From a virus: a DNA stretch of 26,306 bases. This document shows, one piece after another, positions 1 to 25,933 of the stretch. The stretch lies in IMG/VR virus record IMGVR_UViG_3300035703_002194, positions 1-26,306 of that record; one strand, 5' to 3'. A model generated the notes under the pieces. It worked only from the letters and a program-made list of their open reading frames with translations, searched no databases and had not been told where the DNA came from. Position numbers and translations under genes: made by a program. Position 1 is the stretch's first letter. Each line of letters starts with the position of its first letter.

Positions 1-252
1 AAGGCCGGGTACTGGCCGTCGTCCTCGAGTGTGCCCGGGGCCGAACCAACGGGCTTGCTGGTGGATGAGCAGGGGTTCGCGTGGGATCTGACGAACACGG
101 ACGTGAACGTGAATGTGCAGGAGCCACCGGAGACGAACCTGTTGTATCCGGAGCGAGCGGACATTTACATCATGATTTATTGCGATGCCCAGCAGTATCA
201 GGACGTGTACTTCCTGGGCCGTATCTATCGGCGTGAGCCGGGGACAGCGTAG
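1..252 (+). CDS. Phage structural protein, left-truncated
   Basis: The reading frame is open from the first base of the window, so the gene begins outside it. A GTG at 31 is an internal candidate start but has no clear ribosome site. The visible 83 residues are acidic, end in LGRIYRREPGTA, and show no domain I recognise. The stop is followed 9 bases later by the ATG of a Gp80-like tail gene, with GGAGG between them, so the two genes are one rightward operon. By position this is a late structural protein, probably tail or head-tail. The function is inferred from context only. Confidence 0.6.
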   Translation, partial: KAGYWPSSSSVPGAEPTGLLVDEQGFAWDLTNTDVNVNVQEPPETNLLYPERADIYIMIYCDAQQYQDVYFLGRIYRREPGTA

Positions 253-261
253 GAGGCTGGG

Positions 262-624: not shown

Positions 625-671
625 TGGACTTTGAGCAGCTGTTGGACGATATGGATTTCATCAGTGACTAA
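624..671 (+). CDS. Tiny acidic ORF after the tail gene (15 residues)
   Basis: ATG at 624 overlaps the stop of the preceding gene as TGATG, which allows translational coupling. It encodes MDFEQLLDDMDFISD and stops at TAA 669-671. It is very acidic and short. It may be a genuine micropeptide, the remnant of a deleted larger gene, or chance. Nothing downstream on this strand is coding before the leftward terminator at 731-792. Confidence 0.25.
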   Translation: MDFEQLLDDMDFISD

Positions 672-692
672 CCACCCCAAATCGGACATAGC

Positions 693-721
693 GTTTTACG
701 GCGTTCTGAGCCATTCTGAGG
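693..721 (-). promoter_or_regulatory. Operator-like repeat, degenerate member of the promoter family
   Basis: On the plus strand CGTTCTG (702-708) is followed after 3 bases by CATTCTG (712-718), the same 10-bp-spaced direct repeat found in the promoters at 4116-4144, 5252-5280 and 7738-7766. TTCTGAGCCATT is identical to part of the 7738-7766 copy. Read leftward, the aligned -10 position is TAAAAC and the -35 position CCTCAG, which is poor. It therefore looks more like a repressor-binding (stoperator-like) site than an active promoter. It lies between the end of the structural genes and the leftward terminator. Confidence 0.4.
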
Positions 722-730
722 CCCATACGC

Positions 731-792
731 AAAAAAGAGCCCCAGGGGGCTGCCCCCAGCCGCAAACGCGGCCAGGGACAGCCCCAGGGCTC
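731..792 (-). terminator. Intrinsic terminator of the leftward switch-side operon
   Basis: The outer stem GAGCCC (737-742) pairs with GGGCTC (787-792). GGGGCTG (746-752) pairs with CAGCCCC (779-785), and an inner hairpin GCCGC/GCGGC caps it. Read on the minus strand the hairpin is followed by TTTTTT (736-731). It starts 2 bases after the stop codon of the last leftward gene (795), so it ends that operon. It also stands between convergent transcripts. Confidence 0.85.
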
Positions 793-794
793 AT

Positions 795-1115
795 CTAGGC
801 GGGTGTGTCCTCGAGCACCGTCATGTCGGTGATGCTCACCCCGGTGGAATGCCGGGCAAGGGCTGGGTTGCCTCCAGGGCGCGGAGCCGGGGCTTCCCTG
901 ACACCTGCCAGGGGGCCACGGCCGGCGCCGCCGGAGAACATGGGGGACAGCCACACGGCAAGATCCCTGACGCCGTCTACGACACGCACGATCCTGTTCA
1001 GCAGGCCTGCTGCGTTACTGAACCGGTCGAGAGCGGCAACTGCCCCTGGACCAGCGGAGCGGGCCCAGGACGTTGCGAGAACGGCGAGCGTTGATACCAC
1101 AAGGAGGAGAACCAT
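795..1115 (-). CDS. Small protein with N-terminal membrane segment
   Basis: A 106-residue protein. Residues 1-16 (MVLLLVVSTLAVLATS) form a membrane segment or signal anchor. The rest is Ala/Gly/Pro-rich with no domain I recognise. The ATG start has a good ribosome site (GAAAGGA, 7 bases upstream), and a TAG immediately precedes it in frame. It overlaps the 3' end of the upstream Cys/Trp-rich gene by 118 bases in another frame. Last gene of the leftward operon, directly before its terminator. It could be an exported or membrane-bound accessory protein; function unknown. Confidence 0.6.
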   Translation of the reverse strand: MVLLLVVSTLAVLATSWARSAGPGAVAALDRFSNAAGLLNRIVRVVDGVRDLAVWLSPMFSGGAGRGPLAGVREAPAPRPGGNPALARHSTGVSITDMTVLEDTPA

Positions 1116-2002
1116 CTAGGTCCTTTCTTTTGGTGAGCTTCGTAGCAGGCGTTCCAGCCCCGGTAGTAGGACTCCAGGGCGTAGCGCCAGGTGTCTACGA
1201 AGATGTCGGAATAGGTAGCGATGGAGTTGAGACAGTTCGATGTTTGTTCGACGACATTTACAAGTTTCCACTCGTATTCGTTGAGTCCGCAGTCGCATTT
1301 GGCGTGATCCATGTCGCCGTAATCGCAATTGCTGAGGCAGTCATCGCCGATGGGCTGATCGAACTTCTTCCCACAGGCGTGCTCGAACTCATACGCGGCA
1401 CAGATGTTACGTCCCGACGCATGTCTGCATGAGCACGAGTTGTCCCAGTGCGCTTCCTCGGATCCGGTGTTGCAGCAGTACCACGTTGCGGCTTCGTCAT
1501 ACGTGTCTTTCATGGCGTCGTGGTTCCATGTTTCCGCCGCCTCATCAATCCATACGTGAGCGTACTGAGGATCTATGGGAGTGACCGCCCACACTGGTGC
1601 ATACCAGGCGTGAGCGTTCCAGTTCATCTCGTTGCGTGGGACAAGGTTGATGATGTGTGAACGGGACTCCCACATATCCATGTCTTCTCCGTAACTGGGT
1701 GTGCGGTCGTAGCACCACCAGTCGTGGATTTCGACAAACAGTCCGTGGCTGGTGGTTTTCCAGTGCACGAACGACGGTACGAGTTCGTCGTTGTTGACGT
1801 TCGGGATGTTGCCACCCATGTCGACGTAGTTGAGTTCGGCAAGGGTGAGCGGTGTGCTGATCCACGGGATGATGCCGTAGCCCTGAGCTGCAGTGTCGTT
1901 GAGCATCCACAGCCAGGTTCCGTCGTCGAACGGATGGATCCACGGGTACAGGCGACGGACGGGATCGTCAGGATCCACGTCCGCCGCCTGGCCCTCGGTC
2001 AC
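998..2002 (-). CDS. Unknown Cys/Trp/His-rich acidic protein
   Basis: A 334-residue protein with GTG start overlapping the previous stop (GTGA), so translation is probably coupled to the upstream membrane protein. It is unusually rich in Trp (about 20), Cys (more than a dozen, mostly at residues about 170-285, including CC, CSC, and CDCG), His, Asp and Asn. The Cys-rich part could bind metal or form disulphides if exported, but there is no signal peptide. The last 40 residues, overlapping the next gene, are basic and Pro/Gln-rich, unlike the rest. I recognise no family. The close link to a multi-pass membrane protein suggests a joint role, perhaps at the cell envelope; that is inference. Confidence 0.7.
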   Translation of the reverse strand: MTEGQAADVDPDDPVRRLYPWIHPFDDGTWLWMLNDTAAQGYGIIPWISTPLTLAELNYVDMGGNIPNVNNDELVPSFVHWKTTSHGLFVEIHDWWCYDRTPSYGEDMDMWESRSHIINLVPRNEMNWNAHAWYAPVWAVTPIDPQYAHVWIDEAAETWNHDAMKDTYDEAATWYCCNTGSEEAHWDNSCSCRHASGRNICAAYEFEHACGKKFDQPIGDDCLSNCDYGDMDHAKCDCGLNEYEWKLVNVVEQTSNCLNSIATYSDIFVDTWRYALESYYRGWNACYEAHQKKGPRWFSSLWYQRSPFSQRPGPAPLVQGQLPLSTGSVTQQAC

Positions 2003-2946
2003 TTGCGGTTGTGGTGGTGCTTCTTGCCGGGCTTGGCCTGGCGCACCACGGCCTCGGCAACAGCAGCGGCCTCGAGGTCCTGGCGGGCCTCGCGCATGAG
2101 CTGGTCGACCTCAGCAGTGACGACGGTCTCGTCCACGACCACCGCGTCATCCTGAACGGCGGGGGAAAGGTCAGCGTCGAGAATGTCGCTCACCTCGTCC
2201 TTGTGGAAGATCATCGCGGCGATGCCGCCGGCGAGGACCAGAACACCGATGCTGATCGCGACGACACCGGTTGAGGTGAGGATGGCGGGCAGTAGCGGGA
2301 GCCCGGCGAGCATCGGGGTGCCGAGGACGAATCCGGACACGGTGGTGGGGATGAGGCCGGCGCTTGCAGCGGCGATGGAGACGCCCTCAGCGGCGACGAG
2401 GCCGGTGATGACTGTGGCGCCGGTGGTGACGGTGCGGACAGCGGTCTTGTGTCCGAGGATGGCGAACGCCGCCTCAATGCCCTTGTTGATGAGTTCAAAA
2501 GCCACGCCAAGTCCAGTGACAACCGCGGCCCCGACCGTGTCAACGATGGTCATGTTGATACGGCCTCGCGTGATTTTGCTGATGAGCTGCTCAACGTAGT
2601 TGAGCGGCAGGGCTATGGCCGCAACTCCCCAGAACAAGGTGACGCCGACGGCGTTGACACCGAACTTCAGGGTCTTGCGTGCGGTTTCGCGGACCCACTC
2701 GTAGCTGCGGGTTGTGGAGAACGGAGCGGCGATAGCGGTGGACTTCACCACGGTCGGCACGACGCTGAGGGCGTTGCCGATCATTTTCAGGGCAGCCTTC
2801 CAACCGCCAGCTGCAGCGGCCAGGAGCTTCTTCGCCAGGGCCATAGGCTTGGCGAGGGTGGATGCGGCCGCGGACCGGATGGCCTTGGCCTGGGTGAGTG
2901 TGTAGGTGGCACCGTCGATTCGCGGTGCCGCTGTTGCTGTTGACAT
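1999..2946 (-). CDS. Multi-pass membrane protein of unknown function
   Basis: A 315-residue protein. The start at 2946 is chosen because AAGGAG lies 6 bases before the ATG, while the longer reading frame runs through a structured leader. It has an Ala-rich N-terminal region with short amphipathic stretches, then hydrophobic segments at about 98-117, 136-155, 176-209 and 216-247. A charged tail follows (acidic 250-295, then basic, ending KKHHHNRK). About four to six membrane passes are likely. The stop overlaps the start of the Cys/Trp-rich gene. It is not a recognisable holin, transporter or tape measure. A role in superinfection exclusion or lysogenic conversion is possible but only guessed from its position. 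Confidence 0.7.
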   Translation of the reverse strand: MSTATAAPRIDGATYTLTQAKAIRSAAASTLAKPMALAKKLLAAAAGGWKAALKMIGNALSVVPTVVKSTAIAAPFSTTRSYEWVRETARKTLKFGVNAVGVTLFWGVAAIALPLNYVEQLISKITRGRINMTIVDTVGAAVVTGLGVAFELINKGIEAAFAILGHKTAVRTVTTGATVITGLVAAEGVSIAAASAGLIPTTVSGFVLGTPMLAGLPLLPAILTSTGVVAISIGVLVLAGGIAAMIFHKDEVSDILDADLSPAVQDDAVVVDETVVTAEVDQLMREARQDLEAAAVAEAVVRQAKPGKKHHHNRK

Positions 2947-2984
2947 TCCGTTCTCCTTAGTGAACGTGTTGTTTGTTGTGTGAT

Positions 2985-3126
2985 GGGGCGTCGAGCCCAC
3001 ATATCCCCGGCGGGGCTTGCATAAAGAGCGGTAGAGCAAACTGGCAGGTCTCGACGCCCCCCACCCACCACATGCAAAAGCCCCCAGAGGGAATCAACGA
3101 AAACTCTGAGGGTTTGATGTGGTGGG
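2985..3126 (-). promoter_or_regulatory. Complex structured leader with interleaved inverted repeats
   Basis: The intergenic stretch before the membrane gene holds four pairings. (a) GGGGCGTCGAG 2985-2995 with CTCGACGCCCC 3050-3060, 11 perfect pairs. (b) GGGGCTTGCAT 3012-3022 with ATGCAA..GCCCC 3072-3084, with a 2-base bulge. (c) CCCACCACAT 3064-3073 with ATGTGGTGGG 3117-3126, 10 perfect pairs. (d) CCCCCAGAG 3081-3089 with CTCTGAGGG 3104-3112; on the minus strand this hairpin is followed by CTTTTG, so it is terminator-like. Pairings a and b interleave like a pseudoknot, and b overlaps both c and d, so they exclude one another. Function unknown. Confidence 0.55.
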
Positions 3127-3155
3127 CAGGCAACGCGGAGGCACTACGCGTTACA

Positions 3156-3180
3156 CCTAGCCGGATTGGCGACGGCTAGG
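3156..3180. repeat. Hairpin at the stop codon of the small membrane gene
   Basis: CCTAGCCG (3156-3163) and CGGCTAGG (3173-3180) form a perfect 8-bp stem with a 9-base loop. It overlaps the TAG stop (3176-3178) of the 37-residue gene. No T tract follows, so it is more likely an RNA-end or stability element than an intrinsic terminator. Confidence 0.5.
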
Positions 3181-3289
3181 AGTTGATGAGGCTTGCCGGT
3201 GAGTCCGGGACCTTGGGGTGGTCGTCAAGCCAGTGCTGGATGATTTTTGCGGCGCCTACGAGTAGGGCGACGATGAACAGGAACTGCAT
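3176..3289 (-). CDS. Very small membrane protein (37 residues)
   Basis: MQFLFIVALLVGAAKIIQHW begins the protein: one membrane segment (residues 2-16), then a short charged tail with WLDDHPKVPDSP. The ATG at 3289 follows AAAGGCACCACC, a good ribosome site, so the longer upstream frame is not needed. It sits just downstream of three tightly packed Cys-containing small genes. Small single-pass proteins are common in phage lysis or membrane-modifying modules, but nothing here fixes the role. Confidence 0.55.
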   Translation of the reverse strand: MQFLFIVALLVGAAKIIQHWLDDHPKVPDSPASLINS

Positions 3290-3311
3290 GGTGGTGCCTT
3301 TCTGTTGGGGG

Positions 3312-3497
3312 TTACACGGCGACGGGAGTGTCGGATCGTGTGTGGCACTCGCACTCACACGGGTGAGTCAGTTCGTACTCGGCGAGTACCAGGTGGTCAC
3401 CGTCCACTTTGGGGGGTGTAGTGACGACGACCGAGATCTTGTGCGGACACCGATCGTGTTCTGAGATGCAGCAGAAGCCGCTACGGAAGGCGCTCAT
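3312..3497 (-). CDS. Small Cys-rich, possibly zinc-binding protein
   Basis: A 61-residue protein starting MSAFRSGFCCISEHDRCPH. It has Cys/His groups near both ends (CC..H..CPH at about 9-18 and HPCECECH at about 45-52), enough for one or two metal sites. The ATG at 3497 overlaps the upstream stop as ATGA, the usual coupling in this operon. No family recognised. Confidence 0.55.
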   Translation of the reverse strand: MSAFRSGFCCISEHDRCPHKISVVVTTPPKVDGDHLVLAEYELTHPCECECHTRSDTPVAV

Positions 3498-3745
3498 GAA
3501 GATTCCCGGTGCTTCCACTTACGGTTGACCGGGTCAAACACCCAATCGCCTAAGTAGACGGGGTGACGCACACCGCGAAGCCACGCGTCAGGGTGTTGGC
3601 TGCGGTAGGACGGATGCCGGAGCTTGTCCAGCTCGCGTTGCAGTCTGCGCTCTGCGAAGTGGTCGTAGATGCGCAGGCCGATGTAGCAGACGTTGAGCAC
3701 GATGCTGAATGCCAGGAGCATGACGAGGTACTCGTAGCCCGTCAT
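3494..3745 (-). CDS. Small protein with N-terminal membrane segment
   Basis: An 83-residue protein beginning MTGYEYLVMLLAFSIVLNVC. Residues 5-24 are a membrane segment. The following helix is highly charged (AERRLQRELDKLR), and the tail ends YLGDWVFDPVNRKWKHRESS, which could be a small beta element. ATGA overlaps on both sides show it is translated with its neighbours. Function unknown; an anchored cytoplasmic helix is what can be seen. Confidence 0.6.
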   Translation of the reverse strand: MTGYEYLVMLLAFSIVLNVCYIGLRIYDHFAERRLQRELDKLRHPSYRSQHPDAWLRGVRHPVYLGDWVFDPVNRKWKHRESS

Positions 3746-3957
3746 GACTGGTCCTTGAACAGGAACATGCTGTCGAAGGCGTCTGCGGTGCGCGGATCGC
3801 ACGTGACGTGCCGCCACCGGTACTGGCCCTTCTGATCGAGGTAAAGCGTGTCTTCTTTATCGGGGATGAGGGTGTTGCAGATGGTGCAGAGGGCAGGTTC
3901 GGCCCACTGCTCGGCTTTGACGTCTACATCGACGTCGATGGTGATCGTGAACTTCAC
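3742..3957 (-). CDS. Small zinc-ribbon-like protein
   Basis: A 71-residue protein with GTG start at 3957 chosen for the strong GGAGG 6 bases upstream; the longer frame would begin inside the terminator hairpin. The N-terminus is a beta strand of alternating residues (VKFTITIDVDVDVKAEQW). It is followed by CTIC (about residues 24-27) and HVTCD (about 50-54), a likely zinc site of three Cys and one His. It is the first gene after the terminator at 3973-4002, so its expression depends on read-through or another promoter. Confidence 0.6.
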   Translation of the reverse strand: MKFTITIDVDVDVKAEQWAEPALCTICNTLIPDKEDTLYLDQKGQYRWRHVTCDPRTADAFDSMFLFKDQS

Positions 3958-3971
3958 GGTGCCTCCAAATA

Positions 3972-4109
3972 GGAAAAGCCCCACACCCGAAGGTGTAGGG
4001 CTGATTTGCGTGTTGTTGGTTGTGAGCTTCAGGGAGTGTGAGGCGGTGCCTCGCGTGAGGCTTCCTCGTAGAACCGCCTATTTGCTAGGCAGACTGCTCC
4101 CGTCGGAAC
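3972..4109 (-). ncRNA. Candidate small RNA or attenuated leader
   Basis: A good promoter (4116-4144) and a UUCG-loop terminator (3973-4002) enclose about 138 bases with no convincing ORF. The leftward RNA has a GCCTA-GCAAA-TAGGC hairpin. It also has three alternating blocks GCCTC, GAGGC, GCCTC (about 4039-4061 on the plus strand), so the middle block can pair with either neighbour. This is what one expects from a structured regulatory RNA. Whether it is a stable RNA or the 5' leader of the 3957 gene cannot be decided from sequence. Confidence 0.45.
3973..4002 (-). terminator. Intrinsic terminator with UUCG tetraloop
   Basis: Read leftward, AGCCCTACACC, loop TTCG, then GGTGTGGGGCT: an 11-pair stem with one mismatch, closed by the stable C(UUCG)G loop and followed by TTTTCC. 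It lies between the promoter at 4116-4144 and the GTG start at 3957. It would either end a short RNA or attenuate the downstream small-gene cluster. Confidence 0.75.
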
Positions 4110-4115
4110 ATCACT

Positions 4116-4144
4116 ATTATGACACATTCTGGGACACCGTGCAA
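4116..4144 (-). promoter_or_regulatory. Leftward promoter with embedded operator (P4)
   Basis: Minus strand: -35 TTGCAC (4144-4139), 17-bp spacer, -10 CATAAT (4121-4116), predicted start near 4109. The spacer carries CAGAATGTGT, shared exactly with the promoter at 5252-5280. On the plus strand CATTCTG is followed 10 bp later by CACCGTG. The position between -35 and -10 is ideal for repression. Confidence 0.7.
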
Positions 4145-4146
4145 CA

Positions 4147-4530
4147 TCATGATTTGGGAAGTTGCTCCAAAATGCGATGCCACGGCACATGATTGTCGTT
4201 CAGGCTCTGCACCTCGCACAGAAATATGACCGCGGCATCGTCAATCGGCAGATGAACGCGATCTGCCAGCTCGACGAGCCCCATGCTGTTGTACTGGTGA
4301 GCGATCTCGGACATCAACGAGTCATCGACACCGATGTGCACCAGGATCTGCCCCACAAGACAGGCCGGCTTGATACCAGAAACCGTATCGCCCTCACGTT
4401 CAATGCTGTAGTACGTATTCTCCAGGAACGTCTCTGCCGTGAAGTCCTCCGGAACGGCCTCGATCGCCTTCTCGACGCAGGTACGCACGTACTCGAGGTC
4501 ATACAGGAGCGTGTTCTTGCAATCGGTCAT
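4147..4530 (-). CDS. Hypothetical phage protein (127 residues)
   Basis: An acidic, mostly helical soluble protein starting MTDCKNTLLYDLEYVRTCVEKAIEAVPEDF, with no membrane segment and no motif I recognise. ATG start with AAAGGTAGGA upstream, and a 4-base ATGA overlap with the stop of the membrane-anchored muralytic gene, so the two are co-translated. The stop is 2 bases from the -35 region of promoter P4. Function unknown; the pairing with a cell-wall enzyme is the only hint. Confidence 0.6.
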   Translation of the reverse strand: MTDCKNTLLYDLEYVRTCVEKAIEAVPEDFTAETFLENTYYSIEREGDTVSGIKPACLVGQILVHIGVDDSLMSEIAHQYNSMGLVELADRVHLPIDDAAVIFLCEVQSLNDNHVPWHRILEQLPKS

Positions 4531-5174
4531 ACAGTCCTACCTTTCTTCGGTGGTGTGGTCTTGCACGGGTAGAGCGATAGGCCCGTGCGGAAGGGGGCCA
4601 TGATCCAGTTCTCCCACTGCCACGAGCTCCACATTTGATAGTGGGAGGTGTCGAGTTGGCCGTCAGCGGTTAGCCCCCAGGGCCGCCAATAGGTGCCCTT
4701 CTTCGACAGGATCCGGTACACAATTCGTGACTGTTGAGCGGGATCGCTCATGTTGGCTTCGGTCCACCAGCGCTGCCCGCCCCAGGCACCGCGGTTGATT
4801 TGCCACACTCCCCAGTCCCCGCCATTGAACTGCGGGTGGCCGGGGATGAGGTTCTGGTGCCTGGATTCTCGGTAGGTGATGGCCCAGGCTTGCTTGTGTG
4901 TGTAGCCGGTGAATCCGGCCTCGAACAGGATCGTCGCGGCCTTGTCCTTGCACTTCCAGGTTTTCTTCGGTTGGGACTGGTGTGAGTCGCGCACGATGTA
5001 GACGGCCGGTGCGGCGGCGTGTGTCACGGGTATCGGAGCTGGTGCCGTGACCTCGGTGCTGCGTTCGCCGGGGCATTGCCCGCCGAGGCAGGCGTCTCCG
5101 AGTGCGATTCCGCCGAAGATGGCGAGGATGCCGAGTGTGGCGATGATGATGGCGTTGACGAGTCTGTCGTTCAT
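4527..5174 (-). CDS. Membrane-anchored lysozyme/transglycosylase-like protein
   Basis: A 215-residue protein. Residues about 6-27 form a membrane segment or uncleaved signal, followed by a Pro/Ala/Thr linker to about 65. The lysozyme-like domain (about 74-180) has the candidate catalytic Glu in YRESRH (E103) and the GVWQIN motif (122-127) of soluble lytic transglycosylase/goose-type lysozyme folds, then YRILSKKGTYWRPW. It should cut peptidoglycan glycan strands from the outer face of the membrane. It is well away from the amidase/holin cassette at 10244-11892 and is driven by promoter P5 near the switch, so its role may differ from host lysis. ATG start with GGAGG upstream. Confidence 0.75.
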   Translation of the reverse strand: MNDRLVNAIIIATLGILAIFGGIALGDACLGGQCPGERSTEVTAPAPIPVTHAAAPAVYIVRDSHQSQPKKTWKCKDKAATILFEAGFTGYTHKQAWAITYRESRHQNLIPGHPQFNGGDWGVWQINRGAWGGQRWWTEANMSDPAQQSRIVYRILSKKGTYWRPWGLTADGQLDTSHYQMWSSWQWENWIMAPFRTGLSLYPCKTTPPKKGRTV

Positions 5175-5199
5175 GTTGTGTACCTCCGAGTGAATGCGT

Positions 5200-5244
5200 C
5201 GAGGCCCCTGCTGATCCCGGGGGAGAGGTCAGGCAGGGGCCTCG
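5200..5244 (-). promoter_or_regulatory. 5' stem-loop in the leader of the muralytic gene
   Basis: CGAGGCCCCTGC (5200-5211) and GCAGGGGCCTCG (5233-5244) are a perfect 12-bp inverted repeat with a 21-base loop. The predicted start of promoter P5 is near 5245, so the RNA would begin with this hairpin. No T tract follows. A 5'-terminal stem commonly protects mRNA, so stabilisation is the likely role (inference). Confidence 0.55.
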
Positions 5245-5251
5245 ATGCACC

Positions 5252-5280
5252 ATTATGACACATTCTGCATCATTTCGGAA
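5252..5280 (-). promoter_or_regulatory. Leftward promoter with embedded operator (P5)
   Basis: Minus strand: -35 TTCCGA (5280-5275, weak), 17-bp spacer, -10 CATAAT (5257-5252). The last 16 bases of the element, CAGAATGTGTCATAAT, are identical to promoter P4. The plus-strand repeat is CATTCTG then CATTTCG at 10-bp spacing. It would drive the muralytic gene and the gene after it. Confidence 0.6.
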
Positions 5281-5340
5281 GGTTCAAACGTGGCACGCGA
5301 CGGATGCGGCCGTCGATGTCACCATTTTGGGTGAAGGTTC

Positions 5341-5350
5341 TGGTCTCCTT
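5341..5350 (-). other. Orphan start-associated sequence
   Basis: AAGGAGACCA, identical to the sequence 1-3 bases before several start codons in this genome, but here followed by GAACC with no start codon at the expected place. The nearest ATG (5325) is 15 bases on and opens only 13 codons. This may mark a lost small gene. Confidence 0.35.
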
Positions 5351-5354
5351 CTCC

Positions 5355-5395
5355 TAGCCGTCAGGTGAGGGCGTGCTGGCCCTCCCTGCCGGCTA
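5355..5395. repeat. Strong hairpin after the 51-residue gene
   Basis: TAGCCG, CAGG and GAGGGC (5355-5372) pair with GCCCTC, CCTG and CCGGCTA (5379-5395), giving a long stem with small bulges and a 6-base loop. It includes the stop codon of the 51-residue gene. No T tract on either strand. Confidence 0.5.
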
Positions 5396-5548
5396 CGGAG
5401 CCTCCGTGGAGCCGCTTCTGACGTAGATCTGGCCCCAATCGAAAGCGTCCTCAGCGAGGCGCATCTCGACTTCTTCGATGGCTTTGGCTGAACTGTCGGC
5501 TTCGACGATGACGGTGACTTCCCTAGCCACGACAGAGAAGTAGGTCAT
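5393..5548 (-). CDS. Small hypothetical protein (51 residues)
   Basis: ATG at 5548 overlaps the stop of the DUF932 gene as ATGA. The protein begins MTYFSVVAREVTVIVEADSS, continues with a charged helix (AKAIEEVEMRLAEDAF) and ends in IYVRSGSTEAP. The beta-alpha-beta pattern suggests a small folded protein, not noise, and the overlap is typical for this operon. No family recognised. It probably works with, or is dosed with, the DUF932 protein. Confidence 0.6.
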   Translation of the reverse strand: MTYFSVVAREVTVIVEADSSAKAIEEVEMRLAEDAFDWGQIYVRSGSTEAP

Positions 5549-6504
5549 AGCTTGCCCACTATGGCGACGGCCTTGTCCTTGCGCTTGTCCCCGTCAAGGA
5601 GAACGCGCCGGATTTCGGTGTCGAGGCTGTGGGACCGGGAGTAGTGGTCGCACATCTCGATTGCGGTCTGCAACAGTCCCCACTTAGTGCCGCGGATCCC
5701 GTCGGTGGTGACGGACTCGCTGTAGATGGTGCGGAATGTGTCCCGGTCAGCGTTGCGCCGGTCGAGCTGCAGAGTGCTCATGTCAGTGGACAACGGCAGC
5801 CACTTGTCGATGAACCGGTTGAGATCGGCGACGGAGACGTTGGCGGCTGCTAGGTCCTTGGCCATGAGGATCCATTCCTCGCTCGTGCGCAGGGCGGCCT
5901 GGACGGCCTCACGGGCCTCATTCACTCGATCAGCCCAAGTGGAGGTGTGGCGAATGGTCCAGGCGAATCCGTGCCTGTCCATGTTTCGGTCGGCCGCGGC
6001 CTGGGTGTTGGCACACACGACACGAACGTCAGTAGCACCAATCTTGACCCCGCCGACGTCGTGGGATGTCCAGGCGGCGACGTACCGGACGAACGGGCTG
6101 GGATCACCAGGGATCTCAATAGGGTCATCGAGGTACATGGTGCAAGCCACGATGCGGCCACCCTTGAGTGAGATCAGCGTCTCGTACTTGAGCTGCCTGC
6201 CAAGGTCGGAGCCCATGACGTACTCAATGAGGCCACCGAACTCCGTGTTAGAGATGGAAACGCGGGAGTCTTTGCTGACGGTGAGGACTTCGCCGGTGTC
6301 GTTGCGTCGCACTTGGTAGAACCCGGGGATCTGGGTCCACTCTTCACCGGCGCGATTAAAGACAGGGGCGGTTTCAATGTCCCATTTCAGGCCGGCCGCG
6401 TCGGCGGCTTCGGTCCAGGTGCCGGGCCAATGGTCGAGAACGTTACCCATTTTGTGCCAGGCGGGTGTGTGGGCGAACATGCCGTGATCAAAGGACGCGG
6501 GCAT
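5545..6504 (-). CDS. DUF932 / TIGR03299 phage-plasmid protein
   Basis: A 319-residue protein. The N-terminus (MFAHTPAWHKMGNVL), the central GYxQVRRNDTGEVLTVSKDSR-like segment and SHDVGGVKIGATDVRVVCANT (about 144-164) match the DUF932 family (phage/plasmid-like protein TIGR03299), and the roughly 320-residue length is normal for it. Family members occur widely in phages and plasmids; their biochemical activity is not known to me. It overlaps the upstream 120-residue gene by 17 bases and the downstream 51-residue gene by 4. ATG start with AAGGAG upstream. Confidence 0.8.
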   Translation of the reverse strand: MPASFDHGMFAHTPAWHKMGNVLDHWPGTWTEAADAAGLKWDIETAPVFNRAGEEWTQIPGFYQVRRNDTGEVLTVSKDSRVSISNTEFGGLIEYVMGSDLGRQLKYETLISLKGGRIVACTMYLDDPIEIPGDPSPFVRYVAAWTSHDVGGVKIGATDVRVVCANTQAAADRNMDRHGFAWTIRHTSTWADRVNEAREAVQAALRTSEEWILMAKDLAAANVSVADLNRFIDKWLPLSTDMSTLQLDRRNADRDTFRTIYSESVTTDGIRGTKWGLLQTAIEMCDHYSRSHSLDTEIRRVLLDGDKRKDKAVAIVGKL

Positions 6505-6850
6505 CGTCTTTCTCCTTATCTGTGGTGTAGGTGATGTTGTCGTTCAGGTACTGCTCGAGGTCTTCCCACGTCGGGATGTACACCTTGTACATCTCGGAGC
6601 GGGTCTTGAGGGCGGTGAAGGATCCGCGGGCGTTGGGGTACATGCCTGCGTCGTCGGGGTCGTGGTAGTTGGTGATGTACATGGCGTTGTCGGCGTGCGT
6701 GTAGGAGTCGAAGGTGACTCCACCGAGCTCGCGGATACGGGCACCAATTACTTTGGAGACCCAGACGGCCTCCACGGCTTGAGCCCACATCGTGGACTGG
6801 CCGACGCTAAATTTGCTGTGTTGAGTGAGTGCGTAGATTCCTTCGGGCAT
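6488..6850 (-). CDS. Hypothetical phage protein (120 residues)
   Basis: Starts MPEGIYALTQHSKFSVGQSTMWAQAVEAVWVS. It is soluble and mixed alpha/beta, with a Tyr-rich centre (FDSYTHADNAMYITNYHDPDD) and an acidic tail. ATG with GGAAGGGG upstream. It overlaps the DUF932 gene by 17 bases, so the two are expressed together. No motif recognised. Confidence 0.6.
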   Translation of the reverse strand: MPEGIYALTQHSKFSVGQSTMWAQAVEAVWVSKVIGARIRELGGVTFDSYTHADNAMYITNYHDPDDAGMYPNARGSFTALKTRSEMYKVYIPTWEDLEQYLNDNITYTTDKEKDDARVL

Positions 6851-6901
6851 GGCAAAGCCACCCCTTCCATGGTGTGTTGGGGTTATCGGTGTGTGGTGCT
6901 G

Positions 6902-7192
6902 CTAGGCGGGGTCAGGCGCGGGTTCCGCCCGACCGAGGGCAATGTCCTTGAGGAGATCCTCACGAGCCACACCGATGCTGTCGGCCCAGCACGACAACGC
7001 TGTCGCGCACAAGAGCGATAGCTCCACGGCGATGGTGCGCAGGTGCGTGTACTCCTGCTTAAGGGCACTATCGCTCGGGAGAGCGGTGTGATACTGCTCG
7101 CCCGGCATCGCGGCCGGCATGAGATGCGGTGAAGCGGTCATCCAGGCCGTAATCATGGCCATGGAATCACCCGTTGGTGTTCGCGTTTCCAT
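6902..7192 (-). CDS. Hypothetical phage protein (up to 96 residues)
   Basis: The longest start is ATG 7192, just after a GGGGGG run; MAMITAW at 7162 is an alternative. A helical central part (EYTHLRTIAVELSLLCATALSCWADSIGV) is followed by REDLLKDIALGRAEPAPDPA. The pattern resembles small helical phage proteins whose role is unknown. It lies in the leftward operon between the Cys-containing 95-residue gene and the 120-residue gene. Confidence 0.5.
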   Translation of the reverse strand: METRTPTGDSMAMITAWMTASPHLMPAAMPGEQYHTALPSDSALKQEYTHLRTIAVELSLLCATALSCWADSIGVAREDLLKDIALGRAEPAPDPA

Positions 7193-7215
7193 GAAGCCCC
7201 CCCCGAGGCGTTGTG

Positions 7216-7503
7216 CTAGATGGGCAAGATCAGGATGCTGCTGTCAGTGCGTGGACATTCACATTCGGTGCGGTCCACAGTGATGGCTGCAGTGATGAGT
7301 GACTGCACATCATTGGCGCTGAAGATAGGGATACTCCCGACGGCCTCGTGCAGGGGCGTTTCTTGTGGGTCCATGAGGGCCGTGGTGAGGAACGTTGAGA
7401 TGCAGCCAGCGCACAGGAACTGACGCTCTCCGGTGCACTCAGGATATTCGGGCGTGCGATCAATAAGGTCACGGATTGCGACAACCAGCTCCCGAGCGCT
7501 CAT
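7216..7503 (-). CDS. Small Cys-containing phage protein (95 residues)
   Basis: Starts MSARELVVAIRDLIDRTPEYPEC, continues with FLCAGCIS (a CxxC) and ends with ECECPRTD. The spaced Cys pairs suggest a metal site (Cys about 23, 31, 34, and 80-84). The ATG overlaps the stop of the HTH gene as ATGA, so it is the second gene of the leftward switch operon. No named family. Confidence 0.55.
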   Translation of the reverse strand: MSARELVVAIRDLIDRTPEYPECTGERQFLCAGCISTFLTTALMDPQETPLHEAVGSIPIFSANDVQSLITAAITVDRTECECPRTDSSILILPI

Positions 7504-7730
7504 GCGGGCTCCGCGCTGGCGCGGTTGCCGGCCAGGAACGCGGCAAGGTCGTCAAGGCGGACGCGAGTCTTGGTGCGCTTGGAGTCCGGTGGAGCGATAT
7601 CGACAGCGGGCAGGGCGCCGGAGTTGATGAGGCGGTAGACGTGGGGCTTGGAGCACTCAAGGCGCTCGGCGACTTCGCGGATGGAGAGGACGGTGACGCC
7701 AGTGAGGGCGGTTTCTGTGGTCGAGGTCAT
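7500..7730 (-). CDS. Excisionase/Cro-like HTH DNA-binding protein
   Basis: A 76-residue protein. VTVLSIREVAERLECSKPHVYRLINSGALPAVDI is the winged-HTH signature of the MerR/excisionase (HTH_17) group, and RVRLDDLAAFLAG ends the domain. It should act as recombination directionality factor for the adjacent integrase and/or as Cro-like regulator of the divergent repressor. The start at 7730 is chosen because the promoter at 7738-7766 places the transcript start at or next to this ATG (leaderless); ATG 7739 is in frame but would lie inside the -10 region. Confidence 0.7.
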   Translation of the reverse strand: MTSTTETALTGVTVLSIREVAERLECSKPHVYRLINSGALPAVDIAPPDSKRTKTRVRLDDLAAFLAGNRASAEPA

Positions 7731-7737
7731 AGTCAGC

Positions 7738-7766
7738 ATTGAAGGACATTCTGAGCCATTGTGCAA
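7738..7766 (-). promoter_or_regulatory. Leftward switch promoter with operator (P7)
   Basis: Minus strand: -35 TTGCAC (7766-7761), 17-bp spacer, -10 TTCAAT (7743-7738), predicted start near 7731. On the plus strand CATTCTG (7747-7753) is followed after 3 bases by CATTGTG, the 10-bp repeat also present at 4126 and 5261. The -35 hexamer equals that of P4. It is the probable early promoter controlled by the divergent repressor. Confidence 0.65.
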
Positions 7767-7796
7767 CCCCCTGTTCGGCGTGTCGCCCTCTTGAAT

Positions 7797-7898
7797 CGTA
7801 CAGACGTACGAATCTCGAATGGGACATTTCAAAAATGCCCGTGTGTTTGCTAGTTTGTAGTAGCAGTGTGTGTCAGTATGAGTCAGACAGCCAATAAT
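7797..7898 (+). promoter_or_regulatory. Repressor promoter and inverted repeats in the switch region
   Basis: A rightward promoter candidate has -35 GTGTCA (7870-7875), a 17-bp spacer and -10 AATAAT (7893-7898), about 30 bases before the repressor start. Two inverted repeats lie upstream: TCGTAC-AGAC-GTACGA (7797-7812) and GGGACATTT-CAA-AAATGCCC (about 7821-7840). They are candidate sites for the repressor or the divergent HTH protein. Confidence 0.45.
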
Positions 7899-7929
7899 GT
7901 TGAGGAATGATCACAATAAGGAGCATTCT

Positions 7930-8352
7930 GTGAACGTCAATGAGAACGTCGAAAATGGCGGGAAAGACCTAACACTTGTGAAGGTCGAAGCCATACGATT
8001 GTCAGATGCTCTGGTCCGCCGGCGCATCGAACTCGGATATCGCTCCGCACGGGCCTTGGCCGCGGCTATCGGCATGGACGCGCGAACCATCACCGCGCTA
8101 GAAGCCGCAAGACGCACCCAGGTTTCACGGAACACATTGGCGGCTTTGGAAATTGCCCTGCAGTGGGAGCCTGGCCACATCCGCAACCTTCTCGACGCTA
8201 GCTACGGTAGCCGCACTTTCGTTCACGAGCAGAGGGTGTATCTCACTTCTGTTGAAGCCAGTGAAGACGAAATCCGAGTTGCCAGGGCAGTAGCTCAAGC
8301 TGCATTTGAGTCCACGCTTGCTTCTCTGCGCGCAACAGGAACCGGCCAGTAG
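7930..8352 (+). CDS. XRE-type HTH immunity repressor
   Basis: A 140-residue protein. The GTG at 7930 is chosen because AAGGAG lies 6 bases upstream; the ATG at 7897 overlaps the -10 region. The HTH domain at about residues 22-75 (LSDALVRRRIELGYRSARALAAAIGMDARTITALEAA) fits the Cro/CI-XRE fold. The C-terminal half is helical, with no LexA-like protease motif, so induction would not be by RecA-stimulated self-cleavage. It is divergent from the excisionase-like gene and 9 bases before the integrase, a normal lysogeny module. A CATTCTG half-site between its ribosome site and start codon may allow autoregulation. Confidence 0.75.
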   Translation: MNVNENVENGGKDLTLVKVEAIRLSDALVRRRIELGYRSARALAAAIGMDARTITALEAARRTQVSRNTLAALEIALQWEPGHIRNLLDASYGSRTFVHEQRVYLTSVEASEDEIRVARAVAQAAFESTLASLRATGTGQ

Positions 8353-8361
8353 TCTGCCCGT

Positions 8362-9513
8362 GTGAGGGCAAAGGGCGAGGGGACCTACTGGCAACGCCCC
8401 AACGGCACATGGCGTTACCGGATCCTGGTCGACAAACGACGCATCGATGGAACCGGACCTACCCGTAAAGACGCAAAGGCAAACGCCCTGTCAAAACTTA
8501 GGCGACAGGGAACCCGGGCTAAACCCGGAACGGTCACTGACCTGTACGAGAAATGGGCCGCCGCTGGCCCTCAGGCCGCAGGCATTCGTCCAACGACTTT
8601 CGACCAGTACGTCAGCCTGCTGCGCGTGTGGGTACTTCCCACAGTGGGTAATACCCACGTACGGAACCTGACGAAATCTGACGTAGCAACGTGCGCAGCA
8701 ACCTGGACGGGTTCGGCAAGCAGCAAACGCTCTATTTACGCAGCGTTCGTCAAGCTGATCGACTATGCATTGTCCCTCGACATCCTCGGCACGAACATCG
8801 TTCGTGAGGTGCCGCGGCCGGTCGCTCCCACACCAACCCACCGCGATGTACCGGATGATGCGTTTGTACGGCTCATTGCCGTAAGCGAAGGCCACCGGTG
8901 GCAAATTGCCGTGTGGCTAGCGTTCGCCGCCGGGCTACGCCGTGGTGAGATTCTCGGGCTGCAATGGTCGGACATCGACGAAGACACCCTCACCATTGGT
9001 CAGCGGGGAAACATCACCCGCTCTAGCCGGGGGCTCACGCAAGGCCCCCCTAAGACTCGTGCAGGCATACGTCGCATACATGTCTCAGGCGCACTCGCCG
9101 AAGCTCTGGCTCAGCACCGTGTCGCCCAGGCGCAGATGCAGTTGTCGGCCCCGATATGGACCGACTCTGACTTCGTTCTCACAACGCACCTGGGTGGCCC
9201 CGTGGAGCCAAGAGCGCTGTCGCGTGCGTGGCGTGGCTGGGCCCGTGAAGCACGTCTGCCCGACAAGGGCATACACGTGGGTCGGCACTACGCCAGCACA
9301 CACATGCTTGCCAGCGGCGAAGCGTCCGTGGCAGACGTAGCAGCCACGATGGGACATGATCCTGCGGTTCTTCTTCATACCTACGCGGCAGCTGTCGCTT
9401 CGAGTCAGCGCCGGGCAACGGATGCTCTTGGTGAGACTTTAACTCGGCAGGCTGGGGTCACATTTGGGGTCACATCCCCAAAACAACGCAAAATGCGCAA
9501 AGGGTCACAGTGA
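8362..9513 (+). CDS. int: Tyrosine-type phage integrase
   Basis: A 383-residue protein. The N-terminal arm-binding part (GTYWQRPNGTWRYRILV) is followed by a core-binding domain (about 55-150) and the catalytic domain. Catalytic residues visible are R193 (AAGLRRGE), K231 (GPPKTR), H305 and R308 (HVGRH), H332 (MGHDP) and Y341 (HTYAA). It recombines attP (9602-9644, 88 bases downstream) with a host tRNA gene. The GTG start follows the repressor stop by 9 bases with only a weak ribosome site, so it is likely co-translated. The last codons contain two GGGGTCAC arm-type repeats. Confidence 0.95.
   Translation: MRAKGEGTYWQRPNGTWRYRILVDKRRIDGTGPTRKDAKANALSKLRRQGTRAKPGTVTDLYEKWAAAGPQAAGIRPTTFDQYVSLLRVWVLPTVGNTHVRNLTKSDVATCAATWTGSASSKRSIYAAFVKLIDYALSLDILGTNIVREVPRPVAPTPTHRDVPDDAFVRLIAVSEGHRWQIAVWLAFAAGLRRGEILGLQWSDIDEDTLTIGQRGNITRSSRGLTQGPPKTRAGIRRIHVSGALAEALAQHRVAQAQMQLSAPIWTDSDFVLTTHLGGPVEPRALSRAWRGWAREARLPDKGIHVGRHYASTHMLASGEASVADVAATMGHDPAVLLHTYAAAVASSQRRATDALGETLTRQAGVTFGVTSPKQRKMRKGSQ
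9454..9473 (+). repeat. Left arm-type integrase-binding sites
   Basis: GGGGTCAC at 9454-9461 and 9466-9473, 12 bp apart, inside the end of the integrase gene; AGGGTCAC at 9501-9508 is a third near copy. The same octamer pair with the same 12-bp spacing occurs on the other side of the att core, which is what arm-type sites look like. Binding is inferred. Confidence 0.55.
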
Positions 9514-9601
9514 TCCGCAATGAGACGAAAAGTGATAGAAACCTCAACTGAATAGCTGCAAAACGTACTTCCTGAGAATTGCTGATCCCTCATGGCTAGA
9601 T

Positions 9602-9644
9602 CTGGGGGTCAAGGGGTCGCAGGTTCAAATCCTGTCAGCCCGAC
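9602..9644 (+). other. attP: attP core matching the 3' half of tRNA-Pro(GGG)
   Basis: The 43 bases from CTGGGGG to CCCGAC have the layout of the 3' half of a tRNA: anticodon loop CTGGGGG, stem TCAAG, variable AGGTC-like bases, T arm GCAGG-TTCAAAT-CCTGT, acceptor CAGCCCG, discriminator A. The 5' half is absent, so this is not a tRNA gene but the identity block a phage uses to restore the tRNA after integration. GGG at anticodon positions gives tRNA-Pro. It lies next to the integrase. Confidence 0.8.
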
Positions 9645-9705
9645 GGGTATTTATCCACGTCAGACCGGGTAACCGGGTAATCCGGAATAACCGGATGCTT
9701 GTTCC

Positions 9706-9725
9706 GGGGTCACTCCCGGGGTCAC
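9706..9725 (+). repeat. Right arm-type integrase-binding sites
   Basis: GGGGTCAC at 9706-9713 and 9718-9725, again 12 bp apart, matching the left pair at 9454-9473. The second runs into the palindrome GTCACGTGAC (9721-9730). Between the core and this pair are CCGGGTAA direct repeats and an ATCCGG/CCGGAT hairpin (9680-9696), which could be excisionase or host-factor sites. Confidence 0.5.
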
Positions 9726-11648: not shown

Positions 11649-11892
11649 TGCTGGTTCCTTCCGTTGTGGTGCTTGTGTGCGAGTCGGTTTGGTAGGTGCG
11701 GACGTCCTCGTAGGCGGCGCCGCCGATGTAGGCGGCGATGACAGTGCCGATGAGTGCAAATGAGGACAGAACGAGCGTCTGGGCGAGACTTGTGTCGTCC
11801 CAGCGAATGGCCACGTAGACGATGACGGCCATGGCGAAGAGCATGGATCCGAATATGGCTCGTCGACGCAACTTCCAGGATGGCTTAGTCAT
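11638..11892 (-). CDS. Two-helix membrane protein, possible second holin
   Basis: 84 residues: basic N-terminus (MTKPSWKLRRR), hydrophobic segments at about 12-29 and 40-60, then a Thr/Ser-rich tail (TYQTDSHTSTTTEG). The topology and the place directly before the holin fit a second holin or holin regulator, as many actinophages carry membrane-protein pairs in lysis cassettes. It overlaps the S74 fibre gene by ATGA. Confidence 0.65.
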   Translation of the reverse strand: MTKPSWKLRRRAIFGSMLFAMAVIVYVAIRWDDTSLAQTLVLSSFALIGTVIAAYIGGAAYEDVRTYQTDSHTSTTTEGTSSVQ

Positions 11893-13040
11893 GCCAACCT
11901 AGCCTCAAGTGCTTCGATGCGTGACTGCTGGTCACGAATCACGTGTAGCAGAGCGGCAAGAATTGCCGTGTCTAGTACGCCTGCGGCTGTGGTGGAGTCT
12001 GTGTAAAACGTCGCAGCGATGGGCATTTTGGCGGCCACGTCGTCGGCGATGAATCCTAGATGACGTCGCTCCGTTGCCTTGCCTTCATCGATGATGGAGA
12101 ACTCGGCGACAGCGAGCGAAAGCACGTCTTCTGGGCTGGTAGTCACTACGTCGCAGGTGCGGGCTGGGTGTACTGCGGGGGACATGACCCCGCTGACTGT
12201 TGCGATGTCATATTTGAAGAGCTGGCTAGATGAGAGGCGGCGTAGTCGACCGGCTGCTGTGATTCCGACGTTGTCTAGCCCGGTCGTGTTGTTTCCGTAT
12301 ACACCGGGCAAGTCAACGGCTGCGCCTGACACTGAGAGGCTCGCGAGCGCTAGCCCTTGGTTTGCGTGGTTGTGTGAGGTGGCCGCGTATTCATGGTTGT
12401 GGGATGCCCCCGCGTAGGCAGTGTCGTGGTTATGTGCCGTGGCGGCGTACTCGGAGTGCGTGTGGCCTTCGGTTGAGTAGGTTCCGGTGTGCAGGTGTGT
12501 TGAGACGCTGTAGCCCTCATGTGTGTGAGTTGACGGCGCATAGCCAGAGTGAGTGTGGTTACCCGCGGCTGCCTGATTAGCACCTGTTCCCAAGGTGTGG
12601 TGCAGAGACCCTGGGGCGACGTCCGTGTCGGGACTGGTGTGCGATTGGGCTTGAGTGTGCGTGTGGGCCGTGACGGAATATTCCGTGTGCGTGTGCGCCG
12701 CGATTTCCTGCGCCGTGTGCTGATGGGTGGCGGTTGCATAGTTTGAGTGCGTGTGATCGGTGCCGGACTTACTGGCAAGTGAGGCAGTCAGTCCGGTTAC
12801 GGCCGCGATGGCGATGTTTGCGCTGGTTGCCCCGTCGTGTGTGTGGGCTGTGACAGCGCTTGACGCAGCTACTGCTTTGGAGTCCGCGGTAGTAGCGGCC
12901 GTCTGGGCTCCGGAAGCCTTGACGTCGACAGCAGTGACTAGATCATCTACGGTTTCGGCAAGGTTCTCCAAGGCGGCCGGTATATCGGCAGCCTGGGTGT
13001 AGTCATCGGGGTAAGGGATGCCCCTGGTCGTTGTCGCCAT
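11889..13040 (-). CDS. Tail fibre with His-rich repeats and S74 chaperone domain
   Basis: A 383-residue protein. The N-terminus (MATTTRGIPYPDDYTQAADIPAAL) and a coiled region lead to about 170 residues (65-228) of HTH/HNH motifs spaced 8-12 residues apart, typical of trimeric phage fibre shafts. The C-terminal 110 residues (SSSQLFKYDIA, HLGFIADDVA, ending in a coiled coil QQSRIEALEARLA) look like the intramolecular chaperone/S74 peptidase domain that assembles and then leaves the fibre. Host-binding role. ATG start after GGGAGACAC. It shares a module with the upstream fibre gene. Confidence 0.8.
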   Translation of the reverse strand: MATTTRGIPYPDDYTQAADIPAALENLAETVDDLVTAVDVKASGAQTAATTADSKAVAASSAVTAHTHDGATSANIAIAAVTGLTASLASKSGTDHTHSNYATATHQHTAQEIAAHTHTEYSVTAHTHTQAQSHTSPDTDVAPGSLHHTLGTGANQAAAGNHTHSGYAPSTHTHEGYSVSTHLHTGTYSTEGHTHSEYAATAHNHDTAYAGASHNHEYAATSHNHANQGLALASLSVSGAAVDLPGVYGNNTTGLDNVGITAAGRLRRLSSSQLFKYDIATVSGVMSPAVHPARTCDVVTTSPEDVLSLAVAEFSIIDEGKATERRHLGFIADDVAAKMPIAATFYTDSTTAAGVLDTAILAALLHVIRDQQSRIEALEARLA

Positions 13041-13143
13041 CTGTGTCTCCCGCGCCAGTCACTAGCATGACTAGAGTGGAGTAGAACGTAGCAAAATGCT
13101 ACCCGCGACACGCCCATGTGACGTCCAGACACATCGTGAAACG

Positions 13144-25751: not shown

Positions 25752-25779
25752 AGACTGCCCCCTCCCCAGATAACGACGT

Positions 25780-25808: not shown

Positions 25809-25903
25809 CACTATATTCACCAGCAGGTACATGCACATACCAGCACGTCAACTAGAGCCGAGAAGGCAACACCCCACCACCATCCACACAACCACCCACA
25901 ATG

Positions 25904-25933
25904 TGGACAAATGCTTGACAATGCCACTACTAT
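25904..25933 (+). promoter_or_regulatory. Rightward promoter candidate
   Basis: -35 TGGACA (25904-25909), 18-bp spacer, -10 TACTAT (25928-25933). The spacer repeats the -35-like sequence (TTGACA at 25915), giving a GACAA-ATGC/GACAA-TGCC direct repeat. It would transcribe toward the gene at 26116 with a leader of about 175 bases. That leader contains GGTGCAC/GTGCACC (25948-25954 with 25968-25974), GCCGCC/GGCGGC and GTCGG/CCGAC hairpins, and no ORF I can support. Confidence 0.45.

What the first reader, a model, noticed from the sequence alone, without database searches (positions are those of the whole stretch)
7738..7766. Promoter/operator family with a 10-bp-spaced CATTCTG repeat
Sequences at 4116-4144, 5252-5280 and 7738-7766 share a leftward -35/17-bp/-10 layout with CAGAATGT in the spacer; the first two share 16 identical bases, and the first and third share TTGCAC. 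On the plus strand each is CATTCTG followed one helical turn later by a second, more variable copy (CACCGTG, CATTTCG, CATTGTG). A fourth copy (702-718, CGTTCTG then CATTCTG) has no good promoter, like the stoperators of other actinophages. A partial reverse copy occurs at 21017-21033. This looks like the phage repressor regulon.
Basis: partly seen in the sequence, partly recalled or inferred. Interest (0 to 1): 0.65.

Follow-up and report, generated by a model that had tools for sequence, protein, structure and literature searches.

The report
Phage excisionase boxes that regulate genes
The short repeats are real and belong to at least nine rows of 10-bp boxes in the gene gaps of an uncultured actinobacterial phage, also found beside its chromosome-attachment site, so most likely the phage's small excision protein (not the lysogeny repressor) coats them to switch genes and help the prophage leave.

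Summary
The 21017 copy is a lone heptamer next to a start codon and is not supported. The repressor/stoperator reading fits less well. Runs of direct repeats one helical turn apart are the known signature of excisionase-type winged-helix proteins (lambda Xis, P2 Cox, 186 Apl, RdfS, BldC). The window encodes such a protein (HTH_17, 7500-7730 -) directly downstream of site 3. An array also lies at attP (tRNA-Pro 3' end), between one arm-site pair and the core, never on the other side. This one-sided placement recurs in three relatives (44-52% identical xis/rep) that share the int/rep/xis module. Two relatives without that module have no arrays. The xis promoter is conserved, apparently leaderless, and overlapped by the array. 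Most likely this is a Cox/Apl-type dual-purpose excisionase regulon, unusually dispersed over the genome. No binding was tested, and the HTH_3 repressor remains a live rival for the promoter arrays.

The parts
692..718 (+).
4115..4151 (+). 10-bp array, 4 units TATTATG.CATTCTG.CACCGTG.CATCATG overlapping leftward promoter 4144-4116 (TTGCAC-17-CATAAT)
5251..5277 (+). 10-bp array, 3 units CATTATG.CATTCTG.CATTTCG overlapping leftward promoter 5280-5252 (-10 CATAAT)
7737..7763 (+). 10-bp array, 3 units CATTGAA.CATTCTG.CATTGTG over the whole xis promoter
   Evidence: promoter alignable in three relatives; best array of the gap, 0/300 shuffles (contains a training site)
7738..7766 (-). P_xis: TTGCAC (7766-7761), 17 bp, TTCAAT (7743-7738), 7 nt to ATG 7730: predicted leaderless
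   Evidence: sequence; TTGNNN-17-TNNNAT-6/7-ATG conserved in G399, G400, G401
7864..7890 (-). 10-bp array CTGTCTG.CATACTG.CACACTG over a candidate rightward repressor promoter (-10 CAGTAT 7874-7879), same strand relation as sites 1-3
   Evidence: held out from the matrix; TRF 10-bp repeat; arrays also near rep in G399 and G400, weaker in G401
7793..7814 (.). single palindrome GAATCGTAC-AGAC-GTACGAATC in the rep-xis gap; candidate operator of the HTH_3 repressor
   Evidence: expected 0.01; not conserved in relatives
7500..7730 (-). xis: 76-aa HTH_17 / excisionase-family winged-helix protein; proposed binder
   Evidence: PF12728 E 1.5e-12 (longer ORF), TIGR01764 38.1 vs cut-off 28.8, PHROG 66 excisionase/regulator, fold neighbours Pukovnik Xis, BldC, RdfS, orthologues 45-49%
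7930..8352 (+). HTH_3-type probable immunity repressor, divergent from xis
   Evidence: PF01381 E 3.8e-4, below cut-off; immunity-repressor relatives; orthologues 44-52%
8362..9513 (+). tyrosine integrase
   Evidence: PF00589 9.8e-12, PHROG 1
9454..9473 (+). integrase arm-type pair GGGGTCACATTTGGGGTCAC (third copy AGGGTCACA at 9501)
9496..9532 (-). 10-bp array in attP, 4 units CTTTTCG.CATTGCG.CACTGTG.CTTTGCG, between arm pair and core: proposed Xis sites
   Evidence: held out; 0/400 shuffled genomes reach its score; conserved position in three relatives
9602..9646 (+). attP core: 3' part of tRNA-Pro(GGG)
   Evidence: identical to chromosomal tRNA sequences of Clavibacter and Pseudoclavibacter; no complete tRNA in the window
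9706..9725 (+). second integrase arm-type pair GGGGTCACTCCCGGGGTCAC
13072..13098 (-). 10-bp array CATTTTG.CGTTCTA.CACTCTA in the gap before tail gene 11889-13040
   Evidence: held out (7/400 shuffles reach it); array at the same place in L224 and L225
25658..25694 (-). 10-bp array CCTTCTC.CATTCAC.CATTCCG.CATTCCC in the dnaB leader
   Evidence: held out, 0/400 shuffles; weaker array at the same place in L003 3855-3881
25887..25923 (-). 10-bp array CATTGTC.CATTTGT.CATTGTG.GGTTGTG over a rightward promoter (TGGACA 25904-25909, 18 bp, TACTAT 25928-25933) facing the gene at 26117
   Evidence: held out, 0/400 shuffles; homologous array in L003 3642-3678 (29 of 40 nt identical); arrays in the same divergent gap in G399-G401

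Best explanation
The sites are binding arrays of the phage's own excisionase-type recombination directionality factor (Xis, 7500-7730 -). Inferred mechanism: Xis monomers, each on a CATTCTG-like 10-bp unit, bind cooperatively head-to-tail on one face of the DNA and bend it. At attP (or attR in the prophage) the array next to the integrase arm sites sets the excision geometry. At promoters the same filament covers the -10, spacer and -35, so it would repress xis itself (autoregulation), the divergent repressor gene, two downstream leftward promoters and a rightward promoter beyond dnaB; at the dnaB leader and tail-gene gap it may repress or activate. The result would be a Cox/Apl/XisF4-like switch protein with an unusually dispersed set of boxes. 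Shown: arrays, their statistics, their positions, their conservation and the protein family. Inferred: binding, and the sign of regulation.
For: (1) Three to four direct-repeat units at 10-bp pitch; direct identity exceeds inverted identity in most adjacent pairs. (2) RDF sites are direct repeats one helix turn apart, in 186 Apl, lambda Xis, Gifsy-1 Xis and Pukovnik Xis (PMC7498355); BldC binds direct repeats head-to-tail (PMC5859096); RdfS binds attP and its own promoter (PMC11963761). (3) A PF12728/TIGR01764 protein is encoded right after site 3; its moderate-confidence model resembles RacA, Pukovnik Xis, BldC and RdfS. (4) Held-out arrays fall in gene gaps; three, including the one at attP, beat all 400 shuffled genomes. 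(5) In 4 of 4 phages with xis the array lies between one arm-site pair and the tRNA core: mean score 15.4 at 10-bp pitch against 5.2 or less at other pitches, and negative on the other side of the core (only the window supplied training sites, and not from attP). (6) Conserved xis promoter. (7) CANNNTG doubles at 10-bp pitch: 5 each in window, G399, G400 and G401; 0 in relatives G402 and G403, which lack int, rep and xis, and 0 in three published actinophages.
Against: No binding data. xis, rep and int are gained or lost together, so co-occurrence does not single out xis, and rep is as conserved as xis. No conserved alternative operator for rep was found: the palindrome at 7793-7814 is not shared by relatives. 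Arrays at late and structural gaps are not typical of known RDFs. The model is of moderate confidence (pLDDT 65) and its Foldseek E-values are weak (0.05-0.2). In G401 the gap array at 10-bp pitch is weak (14/300 shuffles reach it; pitches 7 and 12 score higher).
Confidence: 0.68

Rival explanations
1. The arrays at promoters are operators of the HTH_3 immunity repressor (7930-8352), which keeps the prophage silent from dispersed sites as in mycobacteriophages BPs and L5; only the attP array belongs to Xis.
For: Promoter-overlapping arrays dispersed over the genome resemble the BPs repressor layout (operator between -10 and -35, extra sites in intergenic promoters; PMC4557955). rep is conserved (44-52%) in every array-bearing relative with a conserved HTH. 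CANNNTG is itself palindromic in its outer bases.
Against: Direct repeats in runs of 3-4 do not suit a dimeric HTH_3 protein. BPs operators are 12-bp palindromes. Rep-cro gaps of three published phages with related repressors carry inverted repeats and no 10-bp arrays. The same unit and pitch occur at attP in 4 of 4 phages.
Confidence: 0.2
2. The arrays are sites of a host BldC-like winged-helix regulator, and the phage promoters are wired to the host developmental or nucleoid network.
For: BldC binds direct repeats as filaments; reported smeA-sffA repeats include CATTTGCAC, GATTTCCCC and CTTTTATCG (PMC5859096), similar to CATTTGT, CATTCCC and CTTTTCG here.
Against: Relatives without the phage xis/rep/int module lack arrays. 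Arrays hug attP. BldC's consensus is AATTNNNN(C) with 9-bp repeats in the whiI complex.
Confidence: 0.06
3. The arrays are merely duplicated promoter sequence or chance repeats in A+T-rich gaps.
For: Sites 1 and 2 share 16 identical bases and may be a duplicated promoter; promoters are A+T-rich.
Against: Dinucleotide shuffles of the genome and of the gaps themselves do not give them, 10 bp is singled out among pitches, and they recur at homologous places in relatives that have diverged to 44-66% protein identity.
Confidence: 0.03

Closest known systems
Apl of coliphage 186 and Cox of P2 (dual-purpose RDFs)
   Same: HTH protein encoded at the start of the lytic operon, opposite the repressor; tandem direct repeats 10-11 bp apart at att and over the lytic/lysogenic promoters (PMC7498355).
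   Different: Unrelated or distant sequence, divergent rather than face-to-face promoters, and further arrays kilobases away at other promoters and gene gaps.
XisF4 of Pseudomonas phage Pf4
   Same: Excisionase transcribed divergently from the repressor gene, represses it, regulates itself and activates the replication gene (PMC7379572); compare the array upstream of dnaB here.
   Different: Filamentous phage; no multi-site array regulon described in the passages read.
BldC of Streptomyces
   Same: Small MerR-like winged helix, head-to-tail filament on direct repeats with one turn per protomer; a chromosome-wide regulon (PMC5859096). Structural neighbour of the model.
   Different: Host developmental regulator, AATTNNNN(C) repeats, no known role in recombination.
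Pukovnik Xis (mycobacteriophage RDF)
   Same: Structural neighbour at 31% identity; cooperative tandem binding at att (PMC7498355).
   Different: No promoter regulon reported in the papers read.
BPs repressor gp33 operators / L5 stoperators
   Same: Actinophage regulatory sites dispersed in intergenic regions; the BPs operator lies between -10 and -35 (PMC4557955).
   Different: 12-bp palindromic half-sites or single asymmetric sites, not runs of direct repeats at 10-bp pitch.

Membership tests
Excisionase-type RDF with a second role as transcription regulator (Cox/Apl/XisF4 kind) | Small winged-helix protein of an excisionase family, encoded by the same element as a tyrosine integrase | tested here: met
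   PF12728 1.5e-12, TIGR01764 above cut-off, integrase PF00589
Excisionase-type RDF with a second role as transcription regulator (Cox/Apl/XisF4 kind) | Tandem direct repeats about one helical turn apart at attP, near arm-type sites | tested here: met
   9496-9532 in the window; same one-sided position in G399, G400, G401
Excisionase-type RDF with a second role as transcription regulator (Cox/Apl/XisF4 kind) | Same repeats over its own promoter and the repressor promoter | tested here: met
   7737-7763 and 7864-7890; arrays in the xis-rep gaps of relatives, weak in G401
Excisionase-type RDF with a second role as transcription regulator (Cox/Apl/XisF4 kind) | The protein binds the repeats, promotes excision and changes transcription | not testable with these tools
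   needs gel shift, excision assay, reporter
Cluster A (L5-type) stoperator system | Single asymmetric sites bound by a monomeric repressor that block elongation | tested here: not met
   sites are runs of 3-4 direct repeats at 10-bp pitch, most of them over promoters
BPs-type repressor operators | 12-bp palindromic half-sites in dispersed intergenic promoters | tested here: not met
   direct identity exceeds inverted identity in most pairs; sequence unlike CGACATATGTCG
BldC regulon sites | AATTNNNN(C) direct repeats | tested here: inconclusive
   pitch and A+T core similar, consensus different

The most novel reading that the evidence does not exclude
An excisionase serves as a genome-wide, nucleoid-like regulator of a temperate actinophage: the RDF that drives prophage excision also coats arrays at early, replication and structural promoters, tying excision directly to the whole lytic programme and doing with an RDF what other actinophages do with stoperators.
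Probability: 0.35. Interest if true: 0.65.

Novelty: new variant of a known kind. Interest (0 to 1): 0.5.

Why it matters
Excisionases are usually discussed at att sites and at most one switch region. Here the boxes can be read from sequence at attP, at the xis promoter and at dispersed promoters across several uncultured phages, so the question of how excision is coupled to the lytic programme becomes directly testable. It also gives a sequence rule (CANNNTG at 10-bp pitch, between an arm pair and the core) for finding RDF sites and poorly characterised xis genes in actinophages, and warns that helically phased direct repeats in phage gaps should not be read automatically as repressor operators.

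Tried and rejected
No close DNA relative among 50,697 phage records for window 1-8000. Single-protein scans of IMG/VR with rep, DUF932 and integrase found nothing, nor did the 17-mer CATTATGACACATTCTG; relatives came through DnaB, DnaE and the terminase of L003. dnaB alignment in bacterial genomes: nothing. xis and rep homologues in 395 Actinobacteria genomes were few and distant and carried no comparable arrays; the best rep homologue locus looked like an isolated remnant. Phage MinS1 has a 55%-identical, unannotated xis but no array scoring like those here in its 16-kb locus. The array-like hit at the integrase 3' end of ThulaThula and dwieneke lies in coding sequence and was not used. Rejected: 21017-21033 and 7924 as family members (lone heptamers); the generic sigma-70 scan as a promoter test (3 found, 2.8 expected). 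PDB sequence search gave nothing useful for xis or rep. No Rfam match.

Full report
What the window is. The window is a whole IMG/VR virus record of 26,306 bases and seems to be a fragment of a temperate actinophage genome. It carries a leftward run of genes including dnaB-like helicase, primase, DnaE-like polymerase, a WhiB-like factor, tail and lysis genes; a rightward repressor-integrase pair at 7930-9513; and a leftward lytic operon starting with an excisionase-family gene at 7730. No close DNA relative of window 1-8000 exists among 50,697 phage records.

Observation. The element is larger than described: each site is a run of three or four CATTCTG-like heptamers at exactly 10-bp pitch. 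Pairs of good heptamers are common at 10 bp (14, with 7 at 20 bp) and scarce at other spacings (0-3); shuffles give about 1.8. With the IUPAC pattern CATTCTGnnnCATTnTG at up to three mismatches, 23 matches are seen against 4.8 +/- 2.4. The copy at 21017 is a lone heptamer beside a start codon, as is one at 7924.

Held-out test. Gene gaps make up 10% of the window, yet 9 of the 10 best remaining 3-unit arrays at 10-bp pitch lie mainly or wholly in them; other pitches from 7 to 13 give lower scores and 0-3 such hits. Three new arrays, 25887-25923 (-), 9496-9532 (-) and 25658-25694 (-), score above the maximum of all 400 dinucleotide-shuffled genomes; 13072-13098 (-) is reached by 7 of 400. I had seen some of these by eye before making the matrix, but no letters from them entered it.

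attP. Downstream of the integrase lies a copy of the 3' part of tRNA-Pro(GGG), 9602-9646, identical to chromosomal tRNA sequences of several Actinobacteria, flanked by pairs of GGGGTCAC repeats at 9454/9466 and 9706/9718 that look like integrase arm sites. The array 9496-9532 sits between the left arm pair and the core, overlapping a third arm-like copy at 9501.

Relatives. DnaB and DnaE led to L003, L224 and L225, and the terminase of L003 to a wider family. L003 has an array homologous to 25887-25923 in the same divergent gap, 29 of 40 nt identical. L224 and L225 have an array in the gap that holds 13072-13098 in the window. Three longer relatives, G399, G400 and G401, carry arrays in the gap between the dnaB and terminase regions, and each encodes xis (45-49% identical), rep (44-52%) and a tyrosine integrase. 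Two others, G402 and G403, have none of these three genes and no arrays. G402 and G403 may be incomplete records. Counting only the bare pattern CANNNTG twice at 10-bp pitch gives 5, 5, 5 and 5 for window, G399, G400 and G401, 0 and 0 for G402 and G403, and 0 for Juicebox, ThulaThula and dwieneke.

Position at attP in relatives. G399-G401 use a tRNA-Asn 3' end as core, with their own arm-type pairs. In all four phages the array lies between one arm pair and the core and never on the other side: mean best score 15.4 at 10-bp pitch against 5.2 or less at pitches 7-9 and 11-14, and -3.0 on the other side; region shuffles reach the attP score in 0-1 of 300. This is where an excisionase is expected to bind and where a lytic repressor has no known role.

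Promoters. The xis promoter aligns in all four phages as TTGNNN-17-TNNNAT followed after 6-7 nt by ATG, so the mRNA is probably leaderless (inference). In the window the array covers -10, spacer and -35. Arrays at leftward promoters are read on the + strand and those at rightward promoters (candidate P_rep at 7864-7890, P26k at 25904-25933) on the - strand: the same relation to transcription. The arrays at 692, 13072 and 25658 are not tied to a clear promoter.

Which protein. The xis product is a 76-aa HTH_17/excisionase-family protein. A single-sequence model of moderate confidence (pLDDT 65) finds RacA, Pukovnik Xis, BldC and RdfS among its nearest solved structures, with weak E-values of 0.05-0.2. 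Published RDFs bind direct repeats one turn apart and some also regulate transcription (PMC7498355; PMC11963761; PMC7379572); BldC does so as a host regulator (PMC5859096). The HTH_3 repressor is the main rival. A strong palindrome unique to the rep-xis gap (7793-7814) could be its operator, but relatives do not share it. Published phages with related repressors have inverted repeats in that gap. Because xis, rep and int come and go together, the phylogenetic pattern cannot separate them; the attP position and the direct-repeat architecture do the separating.

Verdict. A real, conserved regulatory element. Most likely boxes for a dual-purpose excisionase of the Cox/Apl/XisF4 kind, with an unusually dispersed set of sites. 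Binding and the sign of regulation are untested.

Noticed in passing
25712-25768 (-) and L003 3784-3836: Strong hairpin in the dnaB leader (GGGGAGGGGG...CCCTCCC) kept in L003 with a changed inner stem; z about -5.4 and -6.0, suggesting a conserved RNA element.
   Followed up: partly
5190-5255 (-): Leader downstream of the 5252 promoter holds a near-perfect long hairpin CGAGGCCCCTGC/GCAGGGGCCTCG (z -5.9).
   Followed up: partly
3965-4110 (-): The 4116 promoter is followed by a structured stretch of about 130 nt ending in a terminator-like hairpin (4002-3977) before the next gene: a possible small RNA or attenuator.
   Followed up: partly
9602-9646: attP core is the 3' part of tRNA-Pro(GGG), with GGGGTCAC arm-type pairs at 9454/9466 and 9706/9718.
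   Followed up: yes
15836-16333 (-): Phage-encoded WhiB-like transcription factor (PF02467, 2.3e-16), also present in L224 and L225.
   Followed up: no
L005 7959-8198 (MZ923504.1): 'Microcystis phage MinS1' has an unannotated excisionase-family ORF, 55% identical to the window xis, beside its integrase; with a DUF3263 gene nearby its assigned host may deserve a check.
   Followed up: partly
7924 (+) and 21023-21017 (-): Lone CATTCTG between a Shine-Dalgarno-like GGAG and the start codon at two genes (the repressor GTG and the gene at 21016).
   Followed up: no
L241 3923-3949 and L242 5713-5739: G400 and G401 share an almost identical array CATAGTGACGCATACTGATACAATTTG left of the switch region, about 1.8-2.1 kb from xis.
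   Followed up: no
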